A DNA stretch of 64,000 nucleotides, from the NCBI RefSeq assembly GCF_001684965.1, contig NZ_MAYG01000001.1:1302001-1366000 (forward strand), given 5' to 3'. Shown here piece by piece: positions 42,944 to 62,898 of the stretch (positions are counted from its first letter, which is position 1; every line of letters begins with the position of its first letter). The notes under the pieces are model-generated. The model was not told where the DNA came from. It saw only the letters and a list, made by a program, of their open reading frames with translations, and made no database searches. This stretch comes from Chryseobacterium arthrosphaerae (GTDB lineage: Bacteria > Bacteroidota > Bacteroidia > Flavobacteriales > Weeksellaceae). Made by a program: the position numbers and the translations under genes.

Positions 42944-43360
42944 ATGATGTCGAAACGGTGCAAATATGCGTTAAAAGCAATGGTCAGATTAGCAAGAAAT
43001 TATCATCAAGGCTTTCTGCCCACTTCTGTTATTGCACAGGATGAGAACATTCCTAAAAAATTTTTAGAGCAGATCCTCCTGGAACTTAAAAGAGCTAAAC
43101 TCGTCAACAGTAAGCAGGGTAAAGTAGGAGGGTATTACCTGCTGAAGTCTCCTGATGAGGTTTCATTAGCTGATATCTACCGTATTTTTGACGGTCCCAT
43201 TGCTCTTACCCCATGTGTATCTTTAAATTTCTATGAAGCTTGTGACGACTGCGTGGATGAAGCAGTCTGTTACCTGAGAAAAGAATTAATGATCGTTCGT
43301 GAAAAGACCAGAAAAAGCATGATGGAGGCCACTCTAACTAAGTTTATCAATAAAGATTAA
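42944..43360 (+). CDS. Rrf2-family transcriptional regulator (CymR/IscR-like)
   Basis: 138 residues. N-terminal winged helix with KCKYALKAMVRLAR-type opening and the recognition helix region IPKKFLEQILLELKRAKLVNSKQGKVGGY. Four Cys lie in the dimerisation segment (91, 100, 103 and 109), in a spacing that could hold an iron-sulfur cluster as in IscR, or serve thiol sensing. Because it is directly followed by the full cysteine biosynthesis locus, control of sulfur assimilation is the likely job, as for CymR in Firmicutes. Adjacent ATG codons at 42944 and 42947 make the start uncertain by one residue. Confidence 0.9.
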   Translation: MMSKRCKYALKAMVRLARNYHQGFLPTSVIAQDENIPKKFLEQILLELKRAKLVNSKQGKVGGYYLLKSPDEVSLADIYRIFDGPIALTPCVSLNFYEACDDCVDEAVCYLRKELMIVREKTRKSMMEATLTKFINKD

Positions 43361-50802: not shown

Positions 50803-52476
50803 ATGAGCAATAAAGATAACCTTTCCCCGGTAGAAAGGATCAAAACCAGCAGTAACGGGCTCAGGGGAAGTTTAAAAGAAAGCCTTTCAGATAACTTTAC
50901 AGGCGCCATCAGGGAAGATGACCAGACCCTGATCAAATTTCACGGAATGTACCAGCAGGACGACAGGGACCGAAGGGAAGAGCGTGTCTCCAAAAAACTG
51001 GAATGGCTGTATTCTTACATGATCAGATTAAGACTTCCAGGCGGCTTTCTGACTCCCGGACAGTGGATAGGTCTGAATGAAACCGCAGAAGATCATTCTA
51101 CGGGAACTATAAAGATTACCACCAGACAGACCATTCAGCTGCATGGGATCTTAAAATCTCATCTAAAACCTACCATTCAGAGTTTTAATCTTCAGCATCT
51201 TGATTCAATTGCGGCTTGTGGAGATGTCAACAGAAACGTGACCTGTACCGCCAATCCCTCCGAATCACCATTACATCAGCAGGCGTATGAGCTGGCAGGC
51301 AAGATCAGTGAAATGTGTCTTCCCAAAACCCAGTCTTATTACGATATCTGGATAGATGATGAAAAGATTATTGACAGAAAAGCTGAAGAAGACCCTTTGT
51401 ATCAGGACAGATACCTCCCGAGAAAACTGAAAATCGGGATCGCTGTTCCTCCCAATAATGATGTGGACGTCTTCATCAATGATATCGCTCTGATCGCCAT
51501 CATAGAAAATAATGAGATCATAGGCTACAATATTGCAGCAGGAGGCGGATTGGGGGCTACTCACGGAAATGAAGCCACCTATGCCCGTCTGGCTTCGGTA
51601 CTCGGGTTTGTAGATACAGAAGAAAAAGTATTGAAGGCAGTCTATGAGATCATCACAGTACAAAGGGATTTCGGAAACAGAAGTGACCGTAAATTATCAA
51701 GATTAAAATATACCATTGATAAACTTGGTATCAACCAGTACAGGGCTGAAGTGGAGAAAAGAACCGGATTCAGCTTTGAGCCGGCCAGGGCATTTAAGTT
51801 TGAACAGAGAAAAGACCGTTACGGATGGATCAGGAATCATGAAGGGAAATGGTTTTATACTCTCTTTGTAGAGCACGGAAGAGTCCTCAATACTCAGGAA
51901 TATCCTTTGAAAGCAGGCTTGCTCAAGATTGCCCAAACCGGTAAAGCCAATTTTCGTTTCACCTGTAATCAGAATCTTATTCTGGCAGATATCAGTGAAG
52001 AAAATAAACCTGAAATTGAAGCCCTTTTACAGGAATACGGAATTTCTGTTTATACTGAAAAAGCAAGTGCATTGCGCAAAAATTCTGTGGCCTGTGTTGC
52101 CTTAAACACGTGCTCACTGGCCCTGGCCGAAGCACAGCGCTATCTGCCTTCACTGGTTACCAGAATAGAGCCTATCCTGGAAAAATACGGACTTATACAG
52201 GAAGATATTACCATCCGTATGACCGGCTGTCCTAATGGCTGCGGAAGATCTCCCAATGCTGAAATCGGATTTGTGGGAACTGCGTATGGAAAATACAACC
52301 TGCACATCGGTGGCGACAGATTAGGAATGCGTCTTAATACAAAATATAAAGAAAATCTTGGCGAAGAAGAGATTCTTACCACTCTGGATGAGCTTTTCGG
52401 AATGTATGTAGAGAAAAGACTGACAGAGGAAACATTTGGTGATTTTTCATACCGTTATCTGCAAACTTTAAATTAA
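50803..52476 (+). CDS. cysI: sulfite reductase hemoprotein subunit
   Basis: 557 residues, full length. Two ferredoxin-like halves with the siroheme/[4Fe-4S] cysteines C-x5-C in CVALNTC (about 431-437) and C-x3-C in TGCPNGC (about 475-479). TTRQTIQLHGI (about 105-115) and RNVTCTANPSES mark the siroheme pocket. It reduces sulfite to sulfide with six electrons from CysJ. The next start codon, that of the cysteine-tailed small peptide, is only 4 bases after its stop. Confidence 0.97.
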   Translation: MSNKDNLSPVERIKTSSNGLRGSLKESLSDNFTGAIREDDQTLIKFHGMYQQDDRDRREERVSKKLEWLYSYMIRLRLPGGFLTPGQWIGLNETAEDHSTGTIKITTRQTIQLHGILKSHLKPTIQSFNLQHLDSIAACGDVNRNVTCTANPSESPLHQQAYELAGKISEMCLPKTQSYYDIWIDDEKIIDRKAEEDPLYQDRYLPRKLKIGIAVPPNNDVDVFINDIALIAIIENNEIIGYNIAAGGGLGATHGNEATYARLASVLGFVDTEEKVLKAVYEIITVQRDFGNRSDRKLSRLKYTIDKLGINQYRAEVEKRTGFSFEPARAFKFEQRKDRYGWIRNHEGKWFYTLFVEHGRVLNTQEYPLKAGLLKIAQTGKANFRFTCNQNLILADISEENKPEIEALLQEYGISVYTEKASALRKNSVACVALNTCSLALAEAQRYLPSLVTRIEPILEKYGLIQEDITIRMTGCPNGCGRSPNAEIGFVGTAYGKYNLHIGGDRLGMRLNTKYKENLGEEEILTTLDELFGMYVEKRLTEETFGDFSYRYLQTLN

Positions 52477-52480
52477 ATAT

Positions 52481-52561
52481 ATGGTTCATTTTCATCATCC
52501 GGACAAAAATAAAACTACTCAAACTCTTCTTTCAGGCAGACGAATGTGCATGTGTTGTTGA
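52481..52561 (+). CDS. 26-residue peptide ending in Met-Cys-Met-Cys-Cys, candidate cysteine attenuation leader
   Basis: The ATG at 52481 opens 26 codons ending in TGA. The product begins MVHFHHPDKNK and ends SGRRMCMCC, so three of the last four residues are Cys, encoded TGC, TGT and TGT next to the stop. The gene follows cysI by 4 bases and precedes the TonB-dependent receptor by 286 bases. Polycysteine leader peptides that sense cysteine supply by ribosome stalling are known upstream of cysteine genes in Mycobacterium. By analogy this could make the downstream receptor and fusion genes respond to cysteine. I found no unambiguous terminator with a T tract after it, so the mechanism is unproved. 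The His-rich start (HFHH) could instead suggest a metal-binding peptide. Confidence 0.6.
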   Translation: MVHFHHPDKNKTTQTLLSGRRMCMCC

Positions 52562-52604
52562 TTCTCAGATAACAATACTTCAGGCTGTTTCAACTTTTCA
52601 ATTC

Positions 52605-52800
52605 AAACCGCAAAAGTCACAATTTTTTTTAAAACAATTTAGTTCACTTAAGTAAGTTTAAAATAATACTGTATATAAAGTCCATAGAAGATGAAAATCT
52701 TTGATTTTCATGAAACTTAAGTGTACTTCATTTCCACAGAACGTATCACTTACAATACTTAAGTGTTTAAAAAAACTTTGTCTTTGTGGTAAAAAAATAA
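52605..52800 (-). repeat. interspersed AT-rich intergenic repeat, copy D
   Basis: Shorter copy between the small peptide and the TonB-dependent receptor. It contains CACTTAAGTAAGTTTAAA, a perfect hairpin ATGAAAATC-TTT-GATTTTCAT (52691-52711), CTTAAGTGTACTTC and the end module ATACTTAAGTGTTTAAAAAA. Orientation as in copies B and C. It occupies the leader of the receptor gene. Confidence 0.75.
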
Positions 52801-52847
52801 TTGTAAAAGTTCAGACAGCTTCATTCTCAACCTTAAAATGAAGATAA

Positions 52848-55724
52848 ATGAAAAACAAAAAACAGGGAAAACTTTTACCAAAAACAGGCATTATTGCCTT
52901 TACCTTTCTATTTTTTAATCTTGCAGAAGCCCAGCAGCAGCTTATAGAATTAAGCGGAATCATCAAAAATACAGGGACCCGGAAAGGCCTGGATTCTGTA
53001 AAAGTACAGATCGAAAATACTGAAGATACCTCATTTACAGACCCGCTTGGAAATTTTAAAATAAGAACAAGAGTAACCATTCCGTTCCGGCTTGTGATCA
53101 ATAAAGACGGCTATACTCCACAAACCGTTGAAGTTCTTTCTCCTTCCAGTAAAATATCTGTTGGGCTGAATCCTCAGAATACCATTATTGATGCAGTGGT
53201 CATTTCAGCATCCAGAACTCCTGAAAAAATACTGAGGTCTCCCATAGCCATTGAAAAGATTGATATCAGAACGATCAGGGAAAGCCCGGCTGCTTCCTTT
53301 TACGAAACCCTGGAAAATGTAAAAGGATTACAGCTGCTCACTTCCAGCCTTACTTTAAAGATCCCGAATTCCAGAGGATTCAATTCGCCTAATAATTTCA
53401 GGTTTATGCAGCTGGTAGATGGGGTAGATGTACAGTCTGCAACGCTGGGAGTTCCATTGGGAAATGCCATAGGACCTACGGAACTCGATATTCAGTCGAT
53501 GGAAGTCACTCCGGGTGCCGCTTCTGCACTCTATGGAATGAATGCCATCAACGGACTGGCAAGTCTTCAGACCAAAGATCCGTTTACTTCTCAGGGATTA
53601 AGTGTTTATTTCCGGGGAGGAGTCAATCATGTGGATAATATCAACCATAGAATAAGTTCATTGGGAGAAAGTGCCCTCAGGTTTGCCAAGGTTATTCATA
53701 AAAACTGGGCTGTAAAGATCAATGCGTCTTACTTCAATGGGACAGACTGGCTTTCCAATAATCTTACCGATCAGAACCCCAATTCACTTGTTACTGCCAA
53801 TCCGAATTTTTCATTACAGAATAATCCGGCAGAGGATCTATGGAATAAATACGGAGATGAAAGAAACAACAGGGTTGCCGTAAAAGTAGACTATAACGGG
53901 AAGGCAACCACATTCAATGTTTCCAGGACCGGTTACCTGGAAAAAGATCTTGTAAGTCCGGAAGTTAAAAATATTAAGTTTGACGCAGGATTATACTATC
54001 GTTTCGGCGATCAGTGGAAAGCCTCCTACGTTTACCGTTACGGATTATTGGACGGGACATTTCAGAGGGGAAATAAAATCCGTTTGCAAAACGCTACGGT
54101 GCAAAACCATAAGGTAGAGCTTACAGGGAAGGAACTTACTTTCAGAGCATATGTTTCTATTGAAAATACAGGAGATTCCTACAATCTAAAGCCGTTGGCA
54201 GACAATCTGGATCTGACGAATCTTTCCAATGCCAACTGGAGAAATATATTCCAGGCCACATTACAAAACAGCATCAATGCAGGAGTAAACCTTAATGACG
54301 CTTTTATTATTGCCCGCAGGGAAGCCGATAAAAACAGGGTAGTACCCGGAACAGCTGCCTTTGAGCAACTGAAAAATACCATTACCGGAATCAATAACTG
54401 GGACTCTGCCAATGCAGGAGTTGCAGGAGCTCCCGCAACAGGAGGAGCTAAACTTGAACAGAAATCCCGTTTTTACCAGACTGAATTAACGTATGACTTC
54501 AGCAGATTTGTAAAAATATTCAACCTCCTTGCCGGAATAGATTACCGTTTGTACAGCATTACTCCTGACGGAAATAATTTTGTTGATTTCAACAGACCGG
54601 TCAATGAAAGAAATATTCCTTTAGCCAACGGAACATTTGGCAAGGATGTGATTTACGAGAAATATGGAGCTTTTGCACAGATTACTAAGCTTTTCTTTGA
54701 TGATAAATTAAAATTAAACGCTGCTTTGCGTATCGACAGAAATCCGGAATTTGAAGCCAAGCTGAATCCGAGGATAAGCATTGTATATTCTCCTGTAAAT
54801 CAGCATAATTTCAGAGCCTCATTTCAAAACGGGTACCGTTTCCCTTCATTGTTTGAAGCCCTTTCATTTGTGAATAACGGAAATGTAAGAAGAGTAGGCG
54901 GGCTTTCAAAAGTAAACGACGGATTAGGGTATCTGGAAAATTCATACACCTTAGCATCCATTGACAGGTTTACCGCTGCCGTGAATGCTGATATGGACGG
55001 AGGAAAAAGCCAGAGCCAGGCTGCCCAGGACAATAAACAGCTTTTAGCCGTCGCCAGCCTTCAAAAATTACAGCCGGAAAAGATCAATTCATTTGAAATA
55101 GGATATAAATCTGTTTTCTTTAACAATAAACTGGTACTGGACTGGGATTTCTACTACAATATCTATGAAGGATTCCTCGGGCAGGTAGAAGTTGCTGTAC
55201 CCAAAAACAGTCAGGTAGGAAGCAGTACAGCTATTCTTGCTATGCTTGACAGAAGTAAGCAGGACCGCTACAGGGTATATACCAACAGCAACAGCACCTA
55301 CAAAAGCTACGGAACGTCATTGGGCATACGGTATAATGTGACAGGAAACTACAATATCAATACCAATGTATCTTATAATGATCTTGCTTCCAACAATACT
55401 TCAGACCTGTTCATTACGGCATTCAATACTCCAAAGTGGATGGTAAATGTAAGTGTGGGAAACAGAGAGATTGTCAAAAATATAGGATTCACAGTAGTGG
55501 CAAGGTGGCAGAGCGGTTTTATGTGGGAAAGTCCTTTAGCTTCGGGAGCAATTCCGGCTTATTACACCATTGATGCCCAGGCTACCTGGAAACTTCCGGA
55601 GATCCATGCCAATATAAAGGCCGGAGCAACCAATCTTCTCAACAGGCGTTACTTCCAGTATGCCGCAGGACCTGAAATCGGAGGTTTATATTATCTCGCT
55701 TTTACCTATGACTTAAAATTATGA
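52848..55724 (+). CDS. TonB-dependent receptor within the sulfur locus
   Basis: 958 residues. Signal segment ends near NLAEAQQ (about 30). A carboxypeptidase-regulatory-like domain (about 32-115) with LSGIIKNTGTRKGLDSV leads into the plug (about 120-260; VISASRTPEKILRSPIAIEK, GAASALYGMNAINGLASLQTK) and then a barrel ending in YDLKL. It should import a substrate too large or rare for porins. Its last 4 bases overlap the siroheme/permease fusion gene and it follows cysI, so a sulfur compound (sulfonate, sulfate ester or thiol) is the plausible ligand. That is inference from position. Confidence 0.93.
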   Translation: MKNKKQGKLLPKTGIIAFTFLFFNLAEAQQQLIELSGIIKNTGTRKGLDSVKVQIENTEDTSFTDPLGNFKIRTRVTIPFRLVINKDGYTPQTVEVLSPSSKISVGLNPQNTIIDAVVISASRTPEKILRSPIAIEKIDIRTIRESPAASFYETLENVKGLQLLTSSLTLKIPNSRGFNSPNNFRFMQLVDGVDVQSATLGVPLGNAIGPTELDIQSMEVTPGAASALYGMNAINGLASLQTKDPFTSQGLSVYFRGGVNHVDNINHRISSLGESALRFAKVIHKNWAVKINASYFNGTDWLSNNLTDQNPNSLVTANPNFSLQNNPAEDLWNKYGDERNNRVAVKVDYNGKATTFNVSRTGYLEKDLVSPEVKNIKFDAGLYYRFGDQWKASYVYRYGLLDGTFQRGNKIRLQNATVQNHKVELTGKELTFRAYVSIENTGDSYNLKPLADNLDLTNLSNANWRNIFQATLQNSINAGVNLNDAFIIARREADKNRVVPGTAAFEQLKNTITGINNWDSANAGVAGAPATGGAKLEQKSRFYQTELTYDFSRFVKIFNLLAGIDYRLYSITPDGNNFVDFNRPVNERNIPLANGTFGKDVIYEKYGAFAQITKLFFDDKLKLNAALRIDRNPEFEAKLNPRISIVYSPVNQHNFRASFQNGYRFPSLFEALSFVNNGNVRRVGGLSKVNDGLGYLENSYTLASIDRFTAAVNADMDGGKSQSQAAQDNKQLLAVASLQKLQPEKINSFEIGYKSVFFNNKLVLDWDFYYNIYEGFLGQVEVAVPKNSQVGSSTAILAMLDRSKQDRYRVYTNSNSTYKSYGTSLGIRYNVTGNYNINTNVSYNDLASNNTSDLFITAFNTPKWMVNVSVGNREIVKNIGFTVVARWQSGFMWESPLASGAIPAYYTIDAQATWKLPEIHANIKAGATNLLNRRYFQYAAGPEIGGLYYLAFTYDLKL

Positions 55725-60874: not shown

Positions 60875-61264
60875 CTAAGCATTACTGCATTTCGGGCAGA
60901 TACCGCTGATGATAAAATTATATTCTTCAGCAATAAAGTGCTCCGGCAAACTGATTTCCGGGATCGCATTTTCAATACATGTTACAGAATGACATTTTTT
61001 ACAGTTGAAATGAACATGATTGTGAAAATGTTCTTCATGGGTACATTTTCCGCTGCATTTCGCAAAGTTCACCACACCGTCCACATTGACTATTTTATGA
61101 ATAGCCCCTTCATTTTCAAGCCTTTCCAAGACCCGGTAAATAGTCACTCTGTTGCAAAGATCTCCTAACTTCTTCTGAATATCAGAGTGGGTAAGTGCTA
61201 CGTCCGAGTCATTGATCAGGTTTAAAATTTCTGTTTTTGCATGGGTATTTCTGACTTGTTTCAT
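60875..61264 (-). CDS. zur: Fur-family regulator, Zur-like
   Basis: 129 residues. N-terminal winged helix (about 1-65) with RVTIYRVLERLENEGAIHKI, then the dimerisation/metal half: HEEHFHNHVHFNCKKC (His cluster about 76-85, Cys88 and Cys91) and a final C-x-x-C (Cys123, Cys126). The two CxxC pairs form the structural zinc site. A Zur identity is preferred because the divergent genes are a MerC-like protein and a COG0523 GTPase, both typical of zinc regulons, and the intervening promoter region has twin operator-like palindromes. A Fur identity cannot be excluded. Confidence 0.85.
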   Translation of the reverse strand: MKQVRNTHAKTEILNLINDSDVALTHSDIQKKLGDLCNRVTIYRVLERLENEGAIHKIVNVDGVVNFAKCSGKCTHEEHFHNHVHFNCKKCHSVTCIENAIPEISLPEHFIAEEYNFIISGICPKCSNA

Positions 61265-61273
61265 ATTTTTAAT

Positions 61274-61286
61274 GCAACAAAGTTGC
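61274..61286. promoter_or_regulatory. operator-like palindrome 1 (Fur/Zur box candidate)
   Basis: GCAAC-AAA-GTTGC, symmetric and extended imperfectly to AATGCAAC/GTTGCGTT. It lies just upstream of the regulator start and overlaps a near-perfect minus-strand -7 element (CAACTTTG), so it would give autoregulation. Confidence 0.6.
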
Positions 61287-61306
61287 GTTATTTGATTTTT
61301 TATTTT

Positions 61307-61314
61307 TACTTTTG
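61307..61314 (+). promoter_or_regulatory. -7 promoter element of the MerC/COG0523 unit
   Basis: TACTTTTG, a perfect TAnnTTTG. A TTG at 61283-61285 is 21 bases upstream as the -33 element. Its last base begins operator palindrome 2. Confidence 0.6.
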
Positions 61315-61326
61315 CAACAAAGTTAC
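61314..61326. promoter_or_regulatory. operator-like palindrome 2 (Fur/Zur box candidate)
   Basis: GCAAC-AAA-GTTAC, a copy of palindrome 1 with one change, exactly 40 bp away. It covers the probable + strand transcription start and contains a perfect minus-strand -7 element (TAACTTTG, 61318-61325). Confidence 0.6.
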
Positions 61327-61352
61327 AATAAGAAAATTAAATCCCTGCGTTT

Positions 61353-61691
61353 ATGAAATCAAAAATTCTTGATGCTGTAGGAATCTCCGCTGCTGTTTTA
61401 TGCCTGATTCATTGCATTGTATTTCCATTACTGCTGATTGTTCCTCTCGGGATATCACACAATCCTTATATTGACTTAGGCTTTCTGATCATTGGAGCCA
61501 TTGTCGTTTTCAACGTCACTAAAAAAACAGCAAACCGGCAACTGAAGCTGTTATTTTGGCTATCTATTCTCCTGATCTCCATTTCTGTCATGACAGATCT
61601 GATCTTTGAAATCCATCTTCCTCTGATCTATGTGGGAGCTGCAGGACTCATTACAGGACATATCCTCAATTTTAAAAATCATCAACATTAA
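61353..61691 (+). CDS. MerC-domain inner-membrane protein
   Basis: 112 residues with four membrane helices (about 8-30, 38-55, 65-82 and 88-105). The first contains the MerC-type metal motif CLIHC (about 17-21). Family members carry metal ions across the inner membrane. In this position, divergent from a Zur-like regulator and followed by a zinc-type GTPase 4 bases downstream, uptake or handling of zinc is likely, although mercury is the classical substrate. Confidence 0.83.
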   Translation: MKSKILDAVGISAAVLCLIHCIVFPLLLIVPLGISHNPYIDLGFLIIGAIVVFNVTKKTANRQLKLLFWLSILLISISVMTDLIFEIHLPLIYVGAAGLITGHILNFKNHQH

Positions 61692-61695
61692 ATCT

Positions 61696-62898
61696 ATGAC
61701 TCAAAAACTGCCTGTAACCGTACTCAGTGGCTTTCTGGGAGCCGGTAAAACCACGCTGCTGAATTATATCCTTCACAATAAACAAGGCCTGAAAGTAGCC
61801 GTTATAGTGAATGATATGAGCGAAATCAATATTGATGCACGTCTTATAGAAAATCAGAATACACTTTCAAGAACGGAAGAAAAACTGGTGGAAATGAGTA
61901 ATGGCTGCATCTGCTGTACCCTCAGGGAAGATCTCATGACAGAAGTGGAACGCCTGGCACTTGAAAACCGTTTCGATTATCTGCTGATAGAAAGTACCGG
62001 GATCAGCGAACCTGTTCCTGTAGCCCAAACCTTTACCTATATTGATGAGGAAAGCGGAATTGATCTTTCCCGTTTCAGCTATATAGATACCATGGTAACG
62101 GTGGTGGACTGTCTTAATTTTATGAAGGATTTTGGCTCGAATGAATTGCTTGCAGACCGTCATCTTACCGATATGGAAGGGGATTACCGGACCATTGTGA
62201 ACCTTCTGACTGACCAGATTGAGTTTGCCAATGTTATCATCCTCAACAAAACTGATCTGATTGATGCTGAAACACTGGGCTTTTTAAAAGCTGCTGTCAA
62301 AAAACTGAATCCTGATGCTGTCATCCTTCAGTCAGAGTTTGGAAAGGTTGACCTGCAAAAGATCTTAAATACAAAACTTTTTGATTTTGATAAAGCCCAG
62401 GCTTCTGCCGGTTGGCAAAAAGAGCTTCAGGCCGGGCACCATACTCCTGAAACAGAAGAATATGGAATCGGCTCACTGGTGTTCAGAGATCAGAGACCTT
62501 TTCATCCTATGAGATTATGGGAATACCTTAATGACCGGTATCCTGAAGGAATCATCAGAGCGAAAGGCTTATTCTGGCTGGCTTCAAGACCGGATGATGC
62601 CCTGAATTTTTCTCAGGCCGGAGGATCTTTCCGTTTGGAAAAAGCAGGAGTGTGGTGGTGCAGTATGCCAATGAGCCATAGGATACGGTATGTTTCATTT
62701 ATAGAAAATCAGAAACTGATAGAAAACAGATGGGATAGGAAGTGGGGAGACAGGATCAACGAGCTTGTCTTTATCGGGCAGAATCTGGATAAAGATCAGA
62801 TCGTAGCCGATCTTCAGGGTTGTCTAATCAATGACCGGGAAAAAGAGCTGTTTGATAAAAAACAGAGTTTTGAAGACCCTTTTCCCCAAAATATTTAA
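61696..62898 (+). CDS. COG0523 CobW/ZNG1-type GTPase, zinc chaperone-like
   Basis: 400 residues from the ATG at 61696. P-loop SGFLGAGKTTLL (about 11-22), the metal-binding CxCC motif CICC (71-74), the second G motif in LIESTGISEP and NKTD near 200. The C-terminal CobW_C domain follows (about 260-380). GTPases of this type deliver zinc to client enzymes under zinc starvation. It is 4 bases after the MerC-like gene, so they share a Zur-like controlled promoter. Confidence 0.9.
   Translation: MTQKLPVTVLSGFLGAGKTTLLNYILHNKQGLKVAVIVNDMSEINIDARLIENQNTLSRTEEKLVEMSNGCICCTLREDLMTEVERLALENRFDYLLIESTGISEPVPVAQTFTYIDEESGIDLSRFSYIDTMVTVVDCLNFMKDFGSNELLADRHLTDMEGDYRTIVNLLTDQIEFANVIILNKTDLIDAETLGFLKAAVKKLNPDAVILQSEFGKVDLQKILNTKLFDFDKAQASAGWQKELQAGHHTPETEEYGIGSLVFRDQRPFHPMRLWEYLNDRYPEGIIRAKGLFWLASRPDDALNFSQAGGSFRLEKAGVWWCSMPMSHRIRYVSFIENQKLIENRWDRKWGDRINELVFIGQNLDKDQIVADLQGCLINDREKELFDKKQSFEDPFPQNI

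What the first reader, a model, noticed from the sequence alone, without database searches (positions are those of the whole stretch)
52481..52561. Polycysteine-ending 26-codon reading frame inside the sulfur assimilation locus
Seen: an ATG 4 bases after cysI opens a 26-codon frame whose last five residues are Met-Cys-Met-Cys-Cys with the Cys codons next to the stop, upstream of a TonB receptor and a siroheme/permease gene. Known: polycysteine leader peptides act as cysteine sensors in Mycobacterium. Inferred: a similar attenuator or translational coupling control in Bacteroidota. The 286-base leader that follows also contains a perfect hairpin (52691-52711).
Basis: partly seen in the sequence, partly recalled or inferred. 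Interest (0 to 1): 0.85.

Follow-up and report, generated by a model that had tools for sequence, protein, structure and literature searches.

The report
Cysteine-sensing leader peptide gates transporter
In Chryseobacterium and related bacteria, a tiny peptide gene ending in cysteine codons sits between a sulfur-assimilation gene and an outer-membrane transporter gene, and the RNA appears to fold so that a ribosome waiting for cysteine switches the transporter on.

Summary
The reading frame is real and conserved. Of 80 cysI loci, all 57 followed by the TonB-dependent receptor carry a short frame with a Cys-rich end; none of the 23 without the receptor do. The Cys residues are kept while their codons change synonymously.

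Leader codons just before and at the first Cys pair with the receptor's start region, about 290 nt downstream in the window. These helices (P0-P2, inner P3) change together between clades and appear in the window's own unguided fold. In folding simulations a ribosome on the first two Cys codons opens the start region. Best reading: a cysteine-responsive translational attenuator of the receptor.

A second receptor family in the genus, behind a SAM-I/IV riboswitch where scanned, pairs its Cys codons with the receptor's AUG. Elsewhere in Bacteroidota, Cys-rich frames precede metY in 17 of 30 loci (2 of 30 on the opposite strand), often with terminators or SAM riboswitches.

Polycysteine leaders are known in Actinobacteria; this is a new variant in another phylum. 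Nothing was tested experimentally.

The parts
50803..52476 (+). cysI, sulfite reductase hemoprotein subunit; last gene before the leader
   Evidence: NCBIfam TIGR02041 760 bits, above cut-off
52481..52561 (+). leader ORF, 26 codons, ending Arg-Arg-Met-Cys-Met-Cys-Cys-stop
   Evidence: Cys leader in 57 of 57 receptor-linked cysI loci
52547..52558 (+). sensor codons Cys-Met-Cys-Cys (TGC ATG TGT TGT)
   Evidence: 44 distinct tails: 2nd Cys 44/44, 3rd Cys 43/44, middle Met 41/44, TGT/TGC synonymous changes (first and second Cys constrained by the search pattern)
52525..52536 (+). 5' strand of P0/P1 (UCUUC UUU.AGG), leader codons just before the Cys codons
   Evidence: window MFE; pair probabilities 0.92-0.98 except the UUU part at most 0.38; cross-species duplexes
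52831..52844 (+). 3' strand of P1/P0 (CCU..AAA, GAAGA), positions -17 to -4 from the receptor start codon
   Evidence: co-change between clades
52542..52546 (+). 5' strand of P2 (GAAUG, Arg-Met codons)
   Evidence: pairs with 52822-52826, probability 0.97-0.99
52822..52826 (+). 3' strand of P2 (CAUUC)
52582..52603 (+). 5' arm of inner stem P3, after the leader stop
   Evidence: pairs with 52799-52821; own versus swapped arms -19.2 versus -13.8 kcal at 14 clusters
52799..52821 (+). 3' arm of P3
   Evidence: 58 matches of 52600-52800 in the host genome, itself included; relatives carry other inserts (output partly cut)
52848..55724 (+). TonB-dependent receptor, proposed regulated gene
   Evidence: Pfam PF00593 and PF07715
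55721..57247 (+). siroheme-synthase N-terminal domain fused to TauE-type permease, overlaps the receptor gene end
   Evidence: Pfam PF13241, PF14824, PF01925

Best explanation
It is a cysteine-responsive translational attenuator of a TonB-dependent receptor. The receptor's initiation region (about -26 to -4 in the window) is held in a long hairpin with the leader codons just before and at the Arg-Met pair that precedes the first Cys. When cysteinyl-tRNA is plentiful, ribosomes pass the Cys codons, finish, and the hairpin re-forms, keeping receptor translation low. When cysteine is scarce, the ribosome waits on the first Cys codons, covers or opens the 5' strands of P1 and P2, and exposes the receptor start. 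Shown by computation: leader conservation, link to the receptor, the helices and their co-change. Inferred: translation of the leader, stalling on Cys codons, the effect on the receptor and its direction.
For: Cys leader present in 57/57 loci with the receptor and 0/23 without. In Soonwooa L111, where by my reading the receptor is reduced to remnants, the leader reads MCMRC; C. elymi L122, with no receptor, has no RMCMCC (sequences). Cys kept, codons vary. Leader:start duplex stronger with own partner than with swapped partners: -15.7 versus -13.7 kcal, 0 of 5000 permutations, 73 loci. One representative per cluster: 28 clusters p<0.0005, 15 median p 0.01, 9 median 0.02, 6 median 0.006. Clade-specific matching pairs include UUUUAGGG:CCCUAAAA, UUUUAGGA:UCCUAAAA, UUUUAGGU:ACCUAAAA, UUUUAAGU:ACUUAAAA. 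P3 co-varies too. The unguided window MFE (-74.8 kcal) contains P0-P3, and the start codon itself is paired with probability about 0.6. In simulation, start-region unpaired probability rises from 0.480 to 0.652 and 0.626 with a ribosome on Cys 1 and Cys 2 (68 loci). An independent second class pairs its Cys codons with the receptor AUG in the 7 loci examined. F. johnsoniae initiation is tuned by start-region structure (PMC6847099, passages).
Against: No expression data. The window's own duplex is only z -1.37 against shuffles. 10 of 73 loci have z above -1.5. The cluster test weakens with unlucky representatives: largest p 0.04 (15 clusters), 0.22 (9), 0.17 (6), 0.67 (3, median 0.18). A footprint on the third Cys or just past it opens the start little (0.565, 0.568), no more than one control footprint 33 nt upstream (0.572; the other control 0.506); a control footprint also gained more than 0.1 in 8 of 68 loci, and L003 shows no effect. 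RNAalifold gave no consensus structure on the joined alignments. L139 and L140 have other tails and other pairings.
Confidence: 0.72

Rival explanations
1. Transcription attenuation: the leader controls termination (intrinsic or Rho-dependent) before the receptor, as in classical amino-acid operons.
For: 12 of 23 Cys leaders scanned elsewhere in the phylum are followed by intrinsic terminators (L063, L074, L081, L082, L195-L198, L200, L202, L183, L220). Rho-dependent versions cannot be excluded by sequence.
Against: No plus-strand terminator in 52400-52900. In 19 of 73 loci only 12-41 nt separate the leader stop and the receptor start, with little or no room for a terminator. The pairing ends at the start region and has no U-run.
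Confidence: 0.13
2. Nascent-peptide arrest or metal/thiol sensing: the RMCMCC peptide itself stalls the ribosome on binding copper, zinc or a thiol signal, as CruR does for a TonB receptor in Bordetella.
For: A TonB receptor is downstream; Fur-family, MerC and CobW genes lie 8-10 kb downstream of the leader; Cys-rich ends can bind metal.
Against: No RAPP/RGPP in 73 leaders; Pro-Pro in one, L008, mid-peptide. Elsewhere in the phylum Cys leaders precede sulfur genes (metY, cysH, a sulfurtransferase) and adjoin SAM riboswitches. The middle Met varies; Arg-Met conservation can be explained by P2 pairing.
Confidence: 0.08
3. Simple translational coupling: the short frame only hands reinitiating ribosomes from cysI towards the receptor and senses nothing.
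For: The leader ATG is 4 nt after the cysI stop in the window and close to it in most relatives listed.
Against: In L085 and L134 the leader sits 285 and 244 nt from cysI yet is conserved. The Cys residues are kept under synonymous drift. The receptor start is 286 nt away in the window.
Confidence: 0.04
4. The frame encodes a Cys-rich peptide product (for example a modified-peptide precursor or metallophore) taken up by the receptor.
For: Chryseobacterium has Cys-containing modified peptides (search listing only).
Against: None of the 10 window proteins scanned matches a peptide-modifying enzyme in Pfam, though 4 of the 10 match nothing and the window left of 42 kb was not scanned. The N-terminal part is poorly conserved. 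Helices P0-P2 overlap the coding sequence.
Confidence: 0.03

Closest known systems
Polycysteine leader peptides of Actinobacteria (PMC1262725; Canestrari 2020, title only)
   Same: Short ORF with Cys codons near the stop, upstream of sulfur genes (PMC1262725 section 6 read, and passages; Canestrari seen only as a reference).
   Different: Another phylum, no sequence relation tested; here inside an operon before a TonB receptor, four bases after cysI, with a defined start-region hairpin. [quoted passage not shown] The Canestrari paper could not be read; I recall, unverified, that its mechanism may involve pairing of the Cys codons with the downstream initiation site.
erm-type translational attenuation
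   Same: A stalled leader ribosome opens a hairpin that hides a downstream start (abstracts in the listing; details recalled).
   Different: The proposed signal is cysteine supply, not a drug; the phylum's mRNAs lack Shine-Dalgarno sequences (PMC6847099, passages).
Classical ribosome-mediated transcription attenuators
   Same: Amino-acid codons as sensor; some of the phylum's metY and cysH leaders have terminators.
   Different: No plus-strand terminator in the window locus.
CruR-like RAPP arrest peptides before TonB receptors (PMC12992588, passages)
   Same: A short upstream frame controls a TonB receptor at translation.
   Different: No RAPP motif here; Cys-ending tail; an export signal was not tested for.

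Membership tests
Amino-acid-sensing leader peptide (ribosome-mediated attenuation) | Short conserved ORF upstream of a pathway-related gene with clustered codons for the sensed amino acid | tested here: met
   57/57 with receptor, 0/23 without; three Cys codons in the last five. That the receptor belongs to the Cys pathway is inferred from its place in the cys operon.
Amino-acid-sensing leader peptide (ribosome-mediated attenuation) | RNA structure coupled to the sensor codons | tested here: met
   P0-P2 between leader and receptor start, co-varying
Amino-acid-sensing leader peptide (ribosome-mediated attenuation) | Expression responds to charging of the cognate tRNA | not testable with these tools
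   needs reporter or ribosome profiling
Classical transcription attenuator | Intrinsic terminator between leader and gene | tested here: not met
   none on the plus strand in 52400-52900
erm-type translational attenuator | Downstream initiation site sequestered by pairing that a leader ribosome would disrupt | tested here: met
   computational only
Actinobacterial polycysteine leader family | Homology of leader or host operon | not tested
   resemblance only; not filed as a member
CruR/RAPP arrest peptides | RAPP/RGPP motif | tested here: not met
   0 of 73 leaders
Known Rfam riboswitch | Match above gathering score | tested here: not met
   no match in the whole window

The most novel reading that the evidence does not exclude
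Bacteroidota have a broad cysteine-attenuation regulon that was built repeatedly from Cys-codon leaders. The same sensor is wired to different outputs: start-site sequestration before TonB receptors, intrinsic terminators before metY and cysH, and arrangement in series with SAM riboswitches, so that one transcript reads cysteine charging and SAM together.
Probability: 0.55. Interest if true: 0.82.

Novelty: new variant of a known kind. Interest (0 to 1): 0.7.

Why it matters
Amino-acid leader peptides were described mainly in Proteobacteria and Actinobacteria; a 2010 survey stated that, apart from ermC, none had been shown outside those groups before its own Firmicutes case (PMC2965389, passage). 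A cysteine attenuator that controls an outer-membrane receptor, in a phylum whose mRNAs lack Shine-Dalgarno sequences, would tie nutrient import to tRNA charging. It points to a sulfur-related cargo for receptors of unknown substrate. It also gives a compact system for testing how start-site structure controls initiation in Bacteroidota.

Tried and rejected
Rejected: the 52691-52711 hairpin as part of the switch (repeat; 12 of 73 leaders). Intrinsic terminator in the window locus. Known riboswitch in the window. Peptide-product idea. RNAalifold on joined leader and start segments returned no structure twice, so pairwise duplexes and swaps were used. A first simple helix score was noisy: own 17.2 versus swapped 16.5, 4 of 2000 permutations at or above it. 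Start sequestration was looked for and not found in eight metY/cysH leaders that have no terminator (z from -1.07 to 1.18). In the cysH survey 5 of 30 loci had Cys-tail frames but so did 5 of 30 on the opposite strand (shuffles 2.2 of 30), so the count alone is no evidence there; four cases (L165, L166, L168, L183) look convincing by eye. Several MCMCC hits outside the family look like chance (L062, L064, L065, L069, L072, L073, L083, L084); L071 and L080 gave no printed row and were not assessed.

Corrections and dropped rows: one search guessed strands and took four loci the wrong way round (L170, L174, L205, L210); one search repeated it with the strands and gave the same counts; L181 has in-frame stops there and is unreliable. 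A looser leader criterion (3 Cys in 6 residues, about 300 nt) flagged 59 of 80 cysI loci, among them 6 of the 21 Chitinophagaceae-type loci without the receptor (these do not look like MCMCC leaders) and missing four of the 57. The leader pattern was widened after seeing L139 and L140. One search left out duplicate regions and L134, L139, L140 (cysI end not recognised); one search used 73 of 75; one search used 68 of 73 (longer than 480 nt left out). The output was partly cut.

Full report
Observation. The frame is exactly as described: ATG at 52481, four bases after the cysI stop, 26 codons, ending Met-Cys-Met-Cys-Cys. A Cys-ending small frame somewhere in 64 kb is not unusual (2 observed; 0-3, mean 1.25, in 20 shuffles), so conservation is the test. 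A pattern for RRMCMCC plus T[AG] is in 18 of 173 genus genomes and 0 in the reversed control. The looser pattern is in 71 of 320 family genomes with 1 control hit. Of 29 of those loci looked at, 25 follow cysI and precede the same TonB receptor; the other four belong to a second class described below. Of 29 genomes without the looser pattern that I searched, 21 gave no cysI at E 1e-100 and 8 did; all 8 carry a variant leader (RMCMCC followed by a few residues, or RMWMCC); a thirtieth genome, from another genus, has the plain RMCMCC leader.

Link to the receptor. The named cysI loci (80 kept of 312 relatives; the nearest are Chryseobacterium) gave 57 with the receptor after cysI and 23 without it (2 Chryseobacterium/Soonwooa, 21 Chitinophagaceae-type, my grouping by title). 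All 57 have a Cys-tail leader and none of the 23 do. The pattern was widened after seeing two divergent leaders (L139, L140); a cruder criterion also flagged Cys-rich stretches in 6 of the 21 Chitinophagaceae-type loci, which do not look like this leader. In Soonwooa L111 the receptor is reduced to remnants and the leader reads MCMRC (sequence, my reading). Two leaders lie 244 and 285 nt from cysI (L134, L085), so they do not depend on cysI. This marks the receptor as the regulated gene.

Sensor. In 44 distinct tails the second Cys is kept in 44, the third in 43, and the middle Met in 41 (Thr, Val, Phe otherwise). Cys codons switch between TGT and TGC (39:5, 29:15, 40:3). The pattern itself fixed the second Cys and nearly fixed the first; only the third was free to become Ser. 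Independent of that pattern, one locus has Trp for the first Cys (L053). The N-terminal part drifts.

Switch. The leader codons before and at the first Cys pair with the receptor start region. In 73 loci the mean duplex energy is -15.7 kcal with the own partner and -13.7 with swapped partners, 0 of 5000 permutations reaching the own value; against shuffled start regions the mean z is -2.67 and 63 of 73 lie below -1.5. Because relatives inflate such tests, I kept one representative per cluster: 28 clusters p<0.0005; 15 median p 0.01 (largest 0.04); 9 median 0.02 (0.22); 6 median 0.006 (0.17); 3 median 0.18 (0.67). The matching pairs differ by clade: UUUUAGGG:CCCUAAAA, UUUUAGGA:UCCUAAAA, UUUUAGGU:ACCUAAAA, UUUUAAGU:ACUUAAAA, UUCUUCUA:UAGAAGAA; the second helix is GAAUG:CAUUC, extended to GAAUGUGUA:UACACAUUC in L049 and replaced by GUGUAUG:CAUACAC in L051. 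An inner stem, P3, joins the end of the leader to the start region in the long-spacer loci (53 loci; own -19.2 versus -13.8 at 14 clusters, p<0.001; 6 clusters median p 0.0015). The unguided fold of 52478-52875 (-74.8 kcal) contains all of them; the UUU part of P1 is weak (probability at most 0.38), and the receptor start codon is paired with probability about 0.6. The window alone is a weak case (duplex z -1.37); the evidence is comparative.

Ribosome effect. A partition-function simulation on 68 of the 73 loci gives mean unpaired probability of the receptor start region of 0.480 with no ribosome, 0.652 and 0.626 with a footprint on the first and second Cys codon, 0.565 on the third and 0.568 just after, against 0.506 and 0.572 for two upstream control footprints. 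The first two Cys codons thus fit a sensor position; the third is no better than one control. With Cys 2 the gain exceeds 0.1 in 50 of 68 loci, with the farther control in 8 of 68; L003 shows none. Profiling in F. johnsoniae shows that start-region structure tunes initiation and places bS1 near -12 to -15 (PMC6847099, passages).

The sequence 52600-52800 has 58 matches in the host genome, itself included (40 of 84 candidates scored; several places match on both strands). It lies inside the P3 stem as an insert. The hairpin occurs within 2 mismatches in 12 of 73 leaders; others carry different inserts, and 19 of 73 have only 12-41 nt between leader stop and receptor start. The tip of the switch therefore tolerates insertions.

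Second class. In 7 of 173 genus genomes, 0 in the control, a leader ending MCMCCCF lies before another TonB receptor, whose start is 137-165 nt from the Met codon of that tail (L031 matches TonB-receptor families below their cut-offs; the others judged by eye). Four of the seven were scanned with Rfam and all four have a SAM-I/IV riboswitch upstream. In all seven the Cys codons themselves pair with the receptor AUG (-15.0 to -21.4 kcal), with a compensatory change in L232 (UUUUUAA:UUAAAAA for UUUCUAG:AUAGAAA). Against shuffles z is -1.65 to -2.30 for the four tested.

Phylum. A pattern scan of 296 genomes gave 23 places, 3 of them in the genus, against 2 in the control. Of 18 assessed, 9 have a sulfur gene next: O-acetylhomoserine sulfhydrylase (metY), cysH or a sulfurtransferase (L074, L063, L079 and L070 checked with NCBIfam, where L079 stays below its cut-off). 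A look upstream of metY without that pattern found Cys-tail frames in 17 of 30 loci, 2 of 30 on the opposite strand and 2.25 of 30 in shuffles, so a few of the 17 may be chance; for cysH the counts were 5, 5 and 2.2 of 30, no excess over the opposite strand. Of 23 leaders scanned, 12 (11 distinct places) have an intrinsic terminator after them. Of 20 loci scanned, 15 contain a SAM-type riboswitch; by their coordinates it lies upstream of the leader in 9 (the four receptor loci, L070, L166, L208, L213, L216) and between leader and gene in 6 (L074, L081, L082, L196-L198). L063 has two Cys leaders in series, each with a terminator, before cysH. Eight leaders without terminators showed no start sequestration, so their mechanism is open.

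Literature. Cys-run leaders are described for Mycobacterium, Propionibacterium and Bifidobacterium without terminators (PMC1262725, section 6 read). The experimental mycobacterial paper was seen only as a reference and is not held. F. psychrophilum operons for amino-acid biosynthesis were said to show clues of leader-peptide attenuation (PMC9723704, passage; its supplement was not available). Ten searches of the held open-access library showed no description of cysteine leaders in Bacteroidota or before a TonB receptor in the rows listed; several lists were capped, and most subscription papers are not held.

Verdict. A real, conserved cysteine leader. The most likely mechanism is translational attenuation of the receptor (0.72). 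It is a new variant of a known kind, with a plausible wider Bacteroidota regulon.

Noticed in passing
window 52607-52790: Copy of an interspersed repeat with complementary ends (ACCGCAAA...UUUGUGGU) and ACTTAAGT motifs; 58 matches in the host genome itself included, some clustered at C1:1965587-1966397.
   Followed up: partly
L063 1500-1840: Two Cys-rich leaders in series (MKIQNNNMMMCMCCSENEGLYATC and MNTITNMSIILLTSTACMMMMCCMQNFARGRLLYCL), each followed by an intrinsic terminator, before cysH.
   Followed up: partly
L074, L081, L082, L195-L198, L200, L202: Cys leader with terminator, with a SAM riboswitch between leader and gene where scanned (L074, L081, L082, L196-L198) and, in all but L082, a second terminator; metY follows in all but L082. 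Apparent two-input control of a sulfhydrylase gene.
   Followed up: partly
L031, L034, L042, L045, L231-L233: TonB receptor with Cys codons of a leader paired to its AUG; SAM-I/IV riboswitch found in the four scanned (L031, L034, L042, L045).
   Followed up: yes
L165 upstream of cysH: Two polycysteine frames (MCFSLAKKTVMAVCECCYYCCCSIVISGR and MQFTTTIKFLRMLCFNKCCCC) before cysH.
   Followed up: no
own genome, L059 and L060: SAM riboswitches directly upstream of two genes that look like other TonB receptors (by eye), without an evident Cys leader.
   Followed up: no
window 42944-43360: Rrf2-family regulator just upstream of cysH, a candidate transcriptional regulator of the operon.
   Followed up: no
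window 60875-62898: Fur-family, MerC-family and CobW-family genes side by side, possibly a metal-homeostasis group.
   Followed up: no
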